Source of the DNA: Nanobdellati archaeon
GTDB taxonomy: Archaea > Nanobdellota > Nanobdellia > Woesearchaeales > JAADFO01
NCBI GenBank assembly: GCA_013152815.1
Contig: JAADFO010000005.1
Span: 1-35,583, forward strand
DNA: 35,583 nucleotides
Reading direction: 5' to 3'
Part shown: positions 3,636 through 6,137 of the stretch, piece by piece
How positions within the stretch are numbered: position 1 is the first letter of the stretch
Layout of the letters: the number at the start of each line of letters is the position of its first letter
Made by a program: the position numbers and the translations under genes
The notes under the pieces: generated by a model
Told to the model about the DNA's origin: nothing
Seen by the model: only the letters and a program-made list of their open reading frames with translations
The model's database searches: none

Positions 3636-3658
3636 TTATGCACGCCATGTCCAGTGGG
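3636..3658. repeat. Island direct repeat copy 1 (TTATGCACGCCATGTCCAGTGGG)
   Basis: 23 bp identical to copy 3 (6115-6137); copy 2 has 2 mismatches. Confidence 0.9.
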
Positions 3659-3693
3659 GTGTGCCGGGTTTTGCTCTGTGTTCAAAGAAATAG

Positions 3694-4119
3694 CTATCTG
3701 CCTGCTCTTGATGAGGTGGGAGATAAGATGAACTTTTTTTCATTTTGCTGGAACTTGATGTTGAATTTATCGAAGAATACTTCCCTTCCGAGAAGCGGAT
3801 TATTGTTGAAGTCATCCAGCACCCAGACGGGCATCTGGAAGACGACACGATCATGGCCTTTCTCAATCTTTACAGACACTTTTGATAAGGTCCCTTTGAC
3901 TGTTCCTCCAATACCTGCAACATCCTGCTTTTTTCCACGAAGATCAAGTTCTAGAAGTTCAGCAAAATCTCTTGAGATGACAGGGGTGTCTGCTCCTGAG
4001 TCGATAAGGGCAACTGAAGTGAGTTTCTGTTTACCCGAGAAGGTGAGAGGTATGCATGGTGCATAGACGTTCCCATGATTCTTACGTTCCTGTAGCTTAT
4101 ATCGAAAGTGCATTGTCAT
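3694..4119 (-). CDS. Retropepsin-like (clan AA) aspartic protease
   Basis: ALIDSGADTPVISRDFAELL catalytic D-S-G-A motif and PLLGREVFFDKFNIKF near the C-terminus; small size (about 141 aa). Confidence 0.75.
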   Translation of the reverse strand: MTMHFRYKLQERKNHGNVYAPCIPLTFSGKQKLTSVALIDSGADTPVISRDFAELLELDLRGKKQDVAGIGGTVKGTLSKVSVKIEKGHDRVVFQMPVWVLDDFNNNPLLGREVFFDKFNIKFQQNEKKFILSPTSSRAGR

Positions 4120-4127
4120 CTTAACAG

Positions 4128-4322
4128 CTAGAATAGCATCGCTTCATTACCTCGTACTTTGGTAATGAACGGGGTGGTCTTGGGTTGCTGTTTTTTTGCT
4201 TTGTTGAAAACTTCTTTTGCTGTCTTTCCAGAGGCAATGACTTTGTTTTGAGATATTGCTACCCATTCGTCTTTGTACTGGCTAAAATCCTCTTTCATGA
4301 AGAACTTGAATTCTTGTTCCAT
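4128..4322 (-). CDS. DUF5678-like small protein; start taken at internal ATG 4322, longer ORF to 4412 possible
   Basis: MEQEFKFFMKEDFSQYKDEWVAISQNKVIASGKTAKEVFNKAKKQQ resembles the DUF5678 pattern; minus-strand TATA (CATATATACG, about 4349-4358) lies about 30 nt upstream of 4322. Confidence 0.65.
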   Translation of the reverse strand: MEQEFKFFMKEDFSQYKDEWVAISQNKVIASGKTAKEVFNKAKKQQPKTTPFITKVRGNEAMLF

Positions 4323-4425
4323 CTTTTCTCTTTTCAAGAAGAGTCTTTTCACGTATATATGGTTTTTCGTTGAAAACCCGGAAGAAATCCACTCAATATG
4401 TAACCATTCCATTGTTTATAAAGCC

Positions 4426-4448
4426 TTATGCACGCAGTGTCCAGTGGG
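4426..4448. repeat. Island direct repeat copy 2 (TTATGCACGCAGTGTCCAGTGGG)
   Basis: Two mismatches to copies 1 and 3; shares the additional left flank AAGCC with copy 1. Confidence 0.88.
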
Positions 4449-4523
4449 TGTTTTGTTTCTGTATAAACTATCGAGTAGTCAACTGCGAAATCTTTATAAA
4501 TGTAAGATATACTCTCTGTATAT

Positions 4524-5651
4524 ATGTCTGAGCGAATTTTTCAAGCAATGGATGAAGTTGCTTCACAAGGACTAGACGCCATGTTAAAAGAAATTGTGCG
4601 GACAGGCTCTGATGAACACGATTATTCTAAAGTGTGCCAAGCAAAATATCATCTAAAAAGATTAGAATTGGGTTTGCCTGAGATTGTTGATTCAGGAAAA
4701 GATATTGAAGACAGAAAAGATTCTCTGCAACCGTTGAATGACGTAATGAGGCAGTGTAGGGCAGAGGTAGCAGCGCATTACAAAGCAGATGGAATTTTTT
4801 TAGAGGCAGCTCTTAATTTTATTGAAGCTGGAAGACCTAAAGATGCAATTGATATGTTTATTAAGGAAGGTTCTGAGAGATCTTTAGCTGATGCTGCGTT
4901 TTGGGCAGTCGAATCCGGTGTTGATTATAAATTTGGTTTTGACTATAGAATACAAAAAGGAGAAATACGGACAGCTTTTGATGAGTTACATAGAGTAAGC
5001 GACTCTCATGGTATCGGAACAGAAGAAAAACAGCGATGGGGAGAATACCTAACAAGAGCTGCTTACCATGCAGTTGTAGATGGAATAAAAGCTGAAATAG
5101 AAGAACAGGAAGGTCAAAAACCTAAAGGCGAAACAATCTCCCAATTACTTGATGGGAGAGATGCTAAGCTTATTTTTGTATCTGATGGCCATATTGATAA
5201 GAATTTTGTAAACTCGTTAAGGTATGTGAGCGAATCAAGTGACCCTGAAATAATTCAATTGGGAATTGAACTATATGCGTTTCTGGTAAGACATGAAGAA
5301 GAAAAACACATGAAAGAATATTATGAAATAACGGAAATGTATCTGAAAGGAAAATTAACAGGCAGTGATGAATATATTCAATATTTAATTAAAAAAACTG
5401 AAGAAAATCAAACAAATGATGAACTTGATTTTGGTAAGTTTATTGCTGAAAGAGCAGTTGACGTTTTACAATTTCATAAGAAATATGATGCTGCTTTAAA
5501 GGTTGCAGAAAGATTCTTGTCTCCGGAACATAAGACGAGGTTTGCATTGCTTGAAAAATTGGGAGATACTCAAAAGTTGGCCCTTGCCTATAGAGACATT
5601 GATGACCCCATCAGCTATGCTATGGTGGTGTCTGGAAGAACGGGCCAATAA
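4524..5651 (+). CDS. Hypothetical AT-rich alpha-helical protein (possibly TPR-like)
   Basis: 375-aa ORF, strongly helical composition, TATA (CTTTATAAATG) upstream near 4492-4502; no family recognised. Confidence 0.75.
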   Translation: MSERIFQAMDEVASQGLDAMLKEIVRTGSDEHDYSKVCQAKYHLKRLELGLPEIVDSGKDIEDRKDSLQPLNDVMRQCRAEVAAHYKADGIFLEAALNFIEAGRPKDAIDMFIKEGSERSLADAAFWAVESGVDYKFGFDYRIQKGEIRTAFDELHRVSDSHGIGTEEKQRWGEYLTRAAYHAVVDGIKAEIEEQEGQKPKGETISQLLDGRDAKLIFVSDGHIDKNFVNSLRYVSESSDPEIIQLGIELYAFLVRHEEEKHMKEYYEITEMYLKGKLTGSDEYIQYLIKKTEENQTNDELDFGKFIAERAVDVLQFHKKYDAALKVAERFLSPEHKTRFALLEKLGDTQKLALAYRDIDDPISYAMVVSGRTGQ

Positions 5652-5852
5652 GAACATCCTGCCTTTCTACGTTCAAGGCCTTTTTCTCGATTGAAACGAA
5701 TCCCTGTTGAATTTCATGGATGTGTAAACGCTTTATCTTGGAGAGACTAAAGCTTTCGAGTAAACGTTCAGGTCTCGCGTTTAGTATCTTTTAAATATTC
5801 TTCTTGATTTGCTTCTTTCATGAAAGTATGGTATAGGTTACAAGTGTATAAA

Positions 5853-6098
5853 ATGAAAAAAGAATTTGAATATCTTTCTAATGTTTATGCTGCGTTGGAT
5901 GAGACGATTTTAAAACGAGCTCATAAGAAGGAATTAAATCGAATATTTGAGCGATTATCTACAGATTTTCCTGTATTAGAAGAATTGGTTAAAGAGAATA
6001 CCCGTGAAGGATATTTCACTCTTTCAGCAGGTGGAACTGTTTATGACCTTGAAAGCGCCAAAAAACTCTTATCCAGATATCTTGTTCTTGCGGCCTAA
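5853..6098 (+). CDS. Small hypothetical helical protein (alternative upstream start 5820)
   Basis: MKKEFEYLSNVYAALDETILKRAHKKELNRIFERLSTDFPVLEEL...; TATA-like CTTTTAAATATTC about 5789-5801. Confidence 0.6.
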   Translation: MKKEFEYLSNVYAALDETILKRAHKKELNRIFERLSTDFPVLEELVKENTREGYFTLSAGGTVYDLESAKKLLSRYLVLAA

Positions 6099-6114
6099 AC
6101 ATGTATTGCACATA

Positions 6115-6137
6115 TTATGCACGCCATGTCCAGTGGG
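6115..6137. repeat. Island direct repeat copy 3 (TTATGCACGCCATGTCCAGTGGG)
   Basis: Perfect 23-bp match to copy 1. Confidence 0.9.

What the first reader, a model, noticed from the sequence alone, without database searches (positions are those of the whole stretch)
3636..6137. AT-rich island bounded and subdivided by three copies of a 23-bp direct repeat: a cassette-like element without an integrase
Seen: TTATGCACGCCATGTCCAGTGGG occurs identically at 3636-3658 and 6115-6137, with a two-mismatch copy at 4426-4448, all in one orientation and all intergenic. Between them the sequence is visibly AT-rich against a GC-rich genome. Copies 1-2 enclose one gene pair (protease/DUF5678, minus strand), copies 2-3 a second pair (plus strand). 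Outside the outer copies lie housekeeping genes (lhr, rps19e). Inference: the repeats are site-specific recombination or insertion boundaries, and each repeat plus gene pair is a mobile cassette served in trans. I recognise no recombinase inside the island.
Basis: partly seen in the sequence, partly recalled or inferred. Interest (0 to 1): 0.82.

Follow-up and report, generated by a model that had tools for sequence, protein, structure and literature searches.

The report
DNA-repair operator copied around gene cassettes
The repeated 23-letter sequence is not a private tag of a mobile element: it is a copied piece of a control site that sits in front of DNA-repair genes in many Woesearchaeales archaea (an apparently undescribed, SOS-like set), duplicated here when foreign AT-rich genes were inserted beside the lhr helicase gene.

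Summary
In detail: three direct copies (0, 2 and 0 mismatches), intergenic, bounding a 36-41% GC island in 58% GC surroundings, and found nowhere else in the genome. Relatives with the same divergent lhr-rps19e pair lack the island.

The 23-mer is not a private recombination tag. Read on the minus strand it holds CCCACTGGACA plus the spacer to a TATA box, that is, the lhr promoter's operator. The same box, 12-17 bp upstream of a TATA box, precedes hef, radA, a PD-(D/E)XK nuclease and an RNase-H-like exonuclease in this genome, and uvrA, uvrB, hjc, nreA, lhr and radA in other families of the order. Unselected test (at most 2 mismatches): 19/30 radA and 9/30 uvrA loci carry it, 0/29 rps19e, 0/29 protease loci; permuted boxes about 0.1. 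It is essentially confined to the order. I propose a repair regulon, possibly damage-inducible, regulator unknown.

The cassette idea survives in altered form: four further small accessory cassettes here, and DUF5678-retropepsin pairs in other genomes, are flanked by different, target-derived direct repeats, three ending at stop codons. So accessory genes were inserted at the lhr operator and duplicated it. Copy 2 probably drives DUF5678-retropepsin. The insertion enzyme is unresolved.

The parts
3636..3658 (+). repeat copy 1; on the minus strand it carries the lhr operator core CCCACTGGACA (3648-3658) and the spacer to the TATA box
3626..3664 (-). lhr promoter: TATA-like CTTTTAAAG (about 3626-3634), spacer, operator with upstream CAC half-site (GGCACACCCCACTGGACA)
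   Evidence: same layout at hef, PD-(D/E)XK, c28 and RNase-H-like genes
4426..4448 (+). repeat copy 2 (2 mismatches)
4415..4451 (-). copy of the operator-spacer-TATA module (TTTATAAAGCC...), 38-column match to copy 1, placed upstream of DUF5678-retropepsin
6115..6137 (+). repeat copy 3: operator core without a TATA box, read toward no gene on its minus strand; loop of an 11/12 bp inverted repeat (6103-6114 / 6144-6155)
926..3598 (-). lhr, large helicase-related protein (target gene of copy 1)
3694..4119 (-). retropepsin-like aspartyl protease
   Evidence: PF13650, PF13975
4128..4412 (-). DUF5678 protein; the true start is probably at 4322 (MEQEF...)
   Evidence: start choice inferred from promoter position and homologues
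4524..5651 (+). 375-aa helical-repeat (TPR-like) protein, rare family (3 of 198 relatives)
5820..6098 (+). 92-aa ORF without known family
6282..6884 (+). rps19e; TATA box about 6163-6172

Best explanation
The 23-mer is a target-derived duplication of the lhr operator. SHOWN by sequence: its minus-strand core CACTGGACA (often CCCACTGGACA, with a CAC/CACTG half-site about 7 bp upstream) lies 12-17 bp upstream of a TATA box in front of DNA-repair genes throughout the order Woesearchaeales. INFERRED: an unidentified regulator binds it and co-regulates repair, perhaps on DNA damage. INFERRED: two accessory gene pairs (retropepsin/DUF5678 and TPR-like/ORF92) entered the lhr-rps19e divergent promoter by recombination that duplicated the operator. 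Copy 1 still serves lhr, copy 2 now sits as operator-promoter in front of DUF5678-retropepsin, and copy 3 is a remnant without a TATA box. Because every cassette has a different repeat that copies its own target, I think homology-driven insertion (single crossover of DNA carrying the pair and a piece of the target region) more likely than one site-specific enzyme, at about 45% against 30%.
For: Box plus TATA: 8 sites with at most 1 mismatch in this genome, permuted boxes mean 0.1, maximum 1. Targets by Pfam: ERCC4/Hef, Rad51, PDDEXK_1, RNase_H_2, plus lhr. Conserved in the same-family genome before the radA operon and the small-ORF operon. Order-wide: 127 of 362 genomes, the reversed control in 4; 70 of 204 same-order against 2 of 178 other-order genomes. 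Targets elsewhere: UvrA, UvrB, Hjc, Nre, RNase_H_2, Hef, Lhr, RadA operons. Unselected test: radA 19/30, uvrA 9/30, rps19e 0/29, protease 0/29. Leaderless geometry: start codon most often 53-58 nt from the box. The spacer shared by the three copies is not shared by other boxes, so the copies share descent. Empty junctions. Sibling cassettes with 28-32 bp repeats, extended to 41-45 bp in two. DUF5678-protease pairs elsewhere: 4 of 25 loci with repeats of at least 18 bp, 0 of 64 controls.
Against: No expression or binding data; damage induction is inferred from target genes only. Targets also include BRO-N proteins, LAGLIDADG endonucleases, small ORFs, one L11 gene and one SRP54 gene. The core is not found near lhr in the same-family genome G001 or in the empty junctions of other families. 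Other genomes' DUF5678-protease pairs lack the box, so copy 2's control of that pair is special to this genome. Copy 3 has no TATA box. Copy 1's island-side flank (GTGTG, giving CACAC) matches the extended operator, which does not fit a plain 23-bp target duplication unless the inserted DNA brought it. No close relative with an empty site of the same species was found.
Confidence: 0.72

Rival explanations
1. Site-specific cassettes: the repeats are att sites of small integrase-less elements moved in trans by a tyrosine recombinase; tandem integration gave three att copies. The operator lies inside the att site because elements must restore the target's function, as at gene 3' ends.
For: Five cassettes in one genome with 23-32 bp exact repeats; three end exactly at, or one base past, the stop codon of a neighbouring gene, typical of att sites. 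One tyrosine recombinase gene is present.
Against: The five repeat sequences are unrelated while only one PF00589 gene is found. Repeat lengths vary from 18 to about 218 bp in relatives. No integrase sits beside any cassette examined.
Confidence: 0.3
2. No mobility: local duplication of the lhr promoter (slippage or tandem duplication) followed by unrelated acquisition of AT-rich genes; copies 1 and 2 are functional operators of two operons of one regulon and copy 3 is a decayed duplicate.
For: Copies 1 and 2 match over the whole operator-spacer-TATA module and both sit upstream of genes in the right orientation.
Against: Flanks beyond the module show no similarity; DUF5678-protease pairs elsewhere also lie between direct repeats; it leaves copy 3 and the sibling cassettes unexplained.
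Confidence: 0.22
3. Transposition with a long target-site duplication made by an unknown transposase or casposase.
For: Exact direct repeats around small cargo.
Against: No terminal inverted repeats with confidence, no transposase, variable repeat length, partly diverged repeats in C12, C7 and L281.
Confidence: 0.05
4. The box is a general upstream activating or cell-cycle element of DNA-replication and repair genes rather than a damage-response operator.
For: Targets include an Orc1/Cdc6-like AAA protein, judged from its sequence (L237), a XerA-like recombinase (L243) and non-repair genes.
Against: Strong skew to excision and recombination repair (uvrA, uvrB, hjc, radA, hef, nreA); this does not exclude cell-cycle control.
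Confidence: 0.3

Closest known systems
Bacterial SOS regulon (LexA box)
   Same: One short operator at a fixed promoter position in front of repair genes such as recA/radA, uvrA and uvrB
   Different: Operator CACTGGN-CACTGGACA is a direct-repeat-like, non-palindromic site upstream of an archaeal TATA box; LexA was not searched for and the regulator is unknown
Saccharolobus Orc1-2 DNA-damage response (DDRE motif ANTTTC; PMC9738581)
   Same: Archaeal promoter element shared by a set of genes tied to DNA damage
   Different: Different sequence. Orc1-2 targets named there are mainly pili, cell-division and orc1-2 genes, and UV arrays in Sulfolobus showed no increase of repair genes (PMC2246294, abstract); here the repair genes themselves carry the box
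Archaeal integrons (PMC9668308)
   Same: Arrays of small accessory gene cassettes bounded by repeated sites
   Different: No integron integrase and no folded attC-like site seen; the repeat differs for each cassette and copies the target
pdif modules / Xer-mobilised toxin-antitoxin cassettes (own knowledge)
   Same: Small toxin-antitoxin-like pairs between short repeats, enzyme in trans
   Different: The repeats here are not dif-like (no palindromic arms), are unrelated to one another, and are direct
Integrative elements at gene 3' ends (tyrosine integrase type; own knowledge)
   Same: Direct repeats that end at the stop codon of a target gene (C7, C11, C12)
   Different: 0.75-1.4 kb, no integrase; the C5 target is a promoter, not a gene end

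Membership tests
DNA-repair regulon with a shared operator (SOS-like, general sense) | same operator upstream of several unlinked repair genes, beyond chance | tested here: met
DNA-repair regulon with a shared operator (SOS-like, general sense) | fixed position relative to promoter and start | tested here: met
DNA-repair regulon with a shared operator (SOS-like, general sense) | induced by DNA damage | not testable with these tools
   no expression data
DNA-repair regulon with a shared operator (SOS-like, general sense) | identified regulator binding the operator | not tested
   no candidate established
LexA/SOS proper | LexA-type palindromic box | tested here: not met
   operator is CACTGGACA with an upstream CAC half-site, not palindromic
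LexA/SOS proper | LexA repressor gene | not tested
Orc1-2 / DDRE regulon | ANTTTC hexamer as the shared element | tested here: not met
   shared element differs (PMC9738581 read)
Integron gene cassettes | attC-like folded sites shared by the cassettes | tested here: not met
   each cassette has an unrelated repeat
Integron gene cassettes | integron integrase nearby | tested here: not met
   none among the window ORFs up to 10 kb; the single PF00589 gene of the genome is on contig C1, and no identification as IntI was made
Mobile cassette with a dispersed 23-mer site | 23-mer flanking other accessory genes in the genome | tested here: not met
   only 3 copies
Integrative elements at gene 3' ends | direct repeats ending at the target gene's stop codon | tested here: inconclusive
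   met in C7, C11, C12, not in C5
Integrative elements at gene 3' ends | cognate integrase | tested here: not met
   no integrase in the cassettes examined

The most novel reading that the evidence does not exclude
Woesearchaeales possess an SOS-type regulon of their own: one operator (CACTGGN-CACTGGACA upstream of TATA) and one unknown regulator induce radA, uvrA, uvrB, hjc, hef, lhr, nreA and nucleases on DNA damage. Accessory gene pairs such as a retropepsin with DUF5678 can be drawn into it by inserting at, and duplicating, an operator.
Probability: 0.5. Interest if true: 0.88.

Novelty: new variant of a known kind. Interest (0 to 1): 0.76.

Why it matters
The best-studied archaeal damage response (Sulfolobus) works through Orc1-2 and a different motif, and UV arrays there did not show induction of repair genes (PMC9738581, PMC2246294). 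An operator shared by radA, uvrA, uvrB, hjc, hef, lhr and nreA across an uncultured DPANN order would be a first candidate SOS-like repair regulon in that group and gives a concrete sequence with which to fish out the regulator. It also suggests that accessory gene pairs in these genomes are inserted as small integrase-less cassettes that copy a piece of their target, and can thereby be wired into a host regulon.

Tried and rejected
A dispersed 23-mer cassette site was rejected. A tRNA or known RNA at the repeats: none. Simple promoter conservation of the whole 23-mer across relatives was rejected, because only the core is shared. A dif-like palindrome was not seen. A box in front of DUF5678-protease pairs of other genomes: not found, so the pair did not bring its operator from a conserved ancestor. 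Co-travel of the TPR-like gene with the protease pair in relatives: none in 29 loci. Motif strings and Woesearchaeota plus regulon searches in the literature gave nothing relevant.

Full report
OBSERVATION. They are the only copies in the 1.49 Mb genome, even with four mismatches, and none occurs in 99 other genomes of the order or, for the central 20 bases, in IMG/VR. The interior has 36-41% GC against 58% outside. The cargo is a retropepsin-like protease (PF13650/PF13975) and DUF5678 on the minus strand, and a 375-aa TPR-like protein plus a 92-aa ORF on the plus strand. Related contigs are labelled Woesearchaeota or Nanoarchaeota.

THE ISLAND IS AN INSERTION. lhr and rps19e are divergent neighbours in several other families, with gaps of about 100 to 860 bp and none of this cargo. 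The TPR-like gene occurs in 3 of 198 relatives and the protease in 29 of 198, usually directly behind a DUF5678 gene. The pair is thus a patchy accessory module.

WHAT THE REPEAT IS. On the minus strand the repeat reads CCCACTGGACATGGCGTGCATAA and in copy 1 continues into GGCTTTTAAAG, a TATA-like box 30-35 bp before the lhr start codon. The 11-mer TGTCCAGTGGG is found five more times in the genome against 0.4 expected. At most of the relevant sites it stands 12-15 bp from a TATA box reading away from it. Aligned in gene direction these are CAC(A/T)CCCCACTGGACA - spacer - TATA - start codon about 30 bp on. With at most one mismatch there are 8 box-plus-TATA sites; permuted boxes give 0.1 on average, at most 1 (for the 9-bp core). 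The downstream genes are lhr, a Hef-type helicase-nuclease (ERCC4), the radA operon (Rad51), a PD-(D/E)XK nuclease, an RNase_H_2 exonuclease, a 140-aa protein, a small-ORF operon, and (copy 2) DUF5678-retropepsin. The only other genome held of the same family, G001, has the box before its radA operon, the orthologous small-ORF operon and a BRO-N protein.

ORDER-WIDE TEST. CCCACTGGACA-N10-19-TWWAWA occurs in 127 of 362 Woesearchaeales genomes; the reversed pattern matches in 4. In a phylum sample it occurs in 70 of 204 same-order genomes but 2 of 178 others. Genes behind these boxes include UvrA (2), UvrB, Hjc (2), Nre (2), RNase_H_2 (3), Hef, Lhr, six radA operons, BRO-N (6), LAGLIDADG (5) and a XerA-like recombinase (radA operons counted). 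To avoid selecting on the box I took the 30 best-scoring Rad51 loci and 30 UvrA loci: with up to two mismatches 19 and 9 carry box plus TATA upstream, against 0 of 29 rps19e and 0 of 29 protease loci; permuted boxes give about 0.1. These sites reveal the fuller operator CACTGG(A/T/C)-CACTGGACA, two half-sites 7 bp apart. That a regulator binds it, and that DNA damage is the signal, are inferences from the gene set. Cell-cycle or constitutive activation is not excluded.

WHY THREE COPIES. The 12-bp spacer TTATGCACGCCA is identical in copies 1 and 3 and 10/12 in copy 2, but differs at the other boxes of the genome, so the three copies share descent. Copies 1 and 2 match over 38 columns including the TATA box; copy 3 matches only over 23-29 bp and has no TATA box. 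Copy 2 is placed to drive DUF5678-retropepsin. Copy 1's island-side flank (CACAC) matches the extended operator, which suggests that the incoming DNA carried an lhr-promoter-like piece.

SIBLING CASSETTES. Among all exact direct repeats of 20 bp or more, 350-8000 bp apart, most lie in repetitive, GC-matched regions that look like paralogous coding sequence, but a few enclose accessory genes of lower GC: C11 (32 bp, a two-gene pair with a weak ParE-like hit), C12 (28 bp, an AAA_14/DUF4143 ATPase), C51 (31 bp, a two-gene pair) and C7 (32 bp, a two-gene pair, only mildly low in GC). In C11, C12 and C7 the repeat is the 3' end of a neighbouring gene and ends at its stop codon (one base beyond in C7); with mismatches it extends to 45 bp (C12) and 41 bp (C7). 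DUF5678-protease pairs of other genomes are also flanked by direct repeats in 4 of 25 loci (18 to 72 bp exact; one extends to about 218 bp and duplicates the 3' end of a cyclophilin-like gene) against 0 of 64 control loci, where the longest is 14 bp. The 18-bp case (L293) looks promoter-like and may be coincidence. The repeats are thus target-derived and differ at every site. One tyrosine recombinase gene was found in the genome. I favour homology-driven insertion; a trans-acting integrase using gene ends remains a serious rival.

COMPARISON AND VERDICT. The element works like an SOS-type operator but fails the LexA-box and DDRE (ANTTTC, PMC9738581) sequence tests, so it is not filed under either. 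The island resembles integron, pdif or 3'-end integrative cassettes but lacks their integrase or shared site. No paper in the held library describes the motif. Its mobile-cassette reading is partly right, but the repeat itself is better explained as a duplicated repair-gene operator.

Noticed in passing
window 6180-6235 (rps19e leader); L010, L031, L038, L039, L043, L050: The rps19e 5' leader carries a recurring two-hairpin element (AGCTA...TAGCT, then TCTAG-NNCC-GNRA-GGNN-CGA) whose second stem changes on both sides between genomes (GCC/GGC, TCC/GGA, ACC/GGT); other genomes have GGTTTAGAGGTTCTAA in the same place. No Rfam match at gathering threshold. Candidate autoregulatory leader of S19e mRNA.
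   Followed up: partly
G000 contigs C7:247-1201, C11:42361-43168, C12:3678-5091, C51:32341-33118: Four further small low-GC accessory cassettes between exact 28-32 bp direct repeats, three of them ending at a neighbouring gene's stop codon.
   Followed up: partly
L281:1214-2633: A DUF5678-retropepsin pair sits between an intact cyclophilin-like gene and a duplicated 3' fragment of it (about 218 bp, over 90% identical).
   Followed up: partly
G000 C51:32341 and C12, C15, C28, C33, C43, C53, C60, C71: Dispersed 31-bp hairpin-like repeat family (TTCACGCGCTAAAGCGC.GGGTATGAAACCC type), eleven degenerate copies, possibly ends of IS200/IS605-like elements.
   Followed up: no
G000 C27:4700-5193 (minus); L208, L211, L225, L235, L239, L252: A conserved operon of tiny ORFs (an acidic protein ending in ..EEGFMxGYL and neighbours) is among the commonest box targets beside radA; function unknown, a checkpoint or inhibitor role is conceivable.
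   Followed up: no
L213, L214, L236, L247, L249, L264, L205: BRO-N domain proteins (the family of bacterial DinD, own knowledge) are frequent targets of the box.
   Followed up: no
window 6103-6155: Copy 3 is framed by an 11/12 bp inverted repeat GTATTGCACATA / TATGTGCATTAC; meaning unknown.
   Followed up: no
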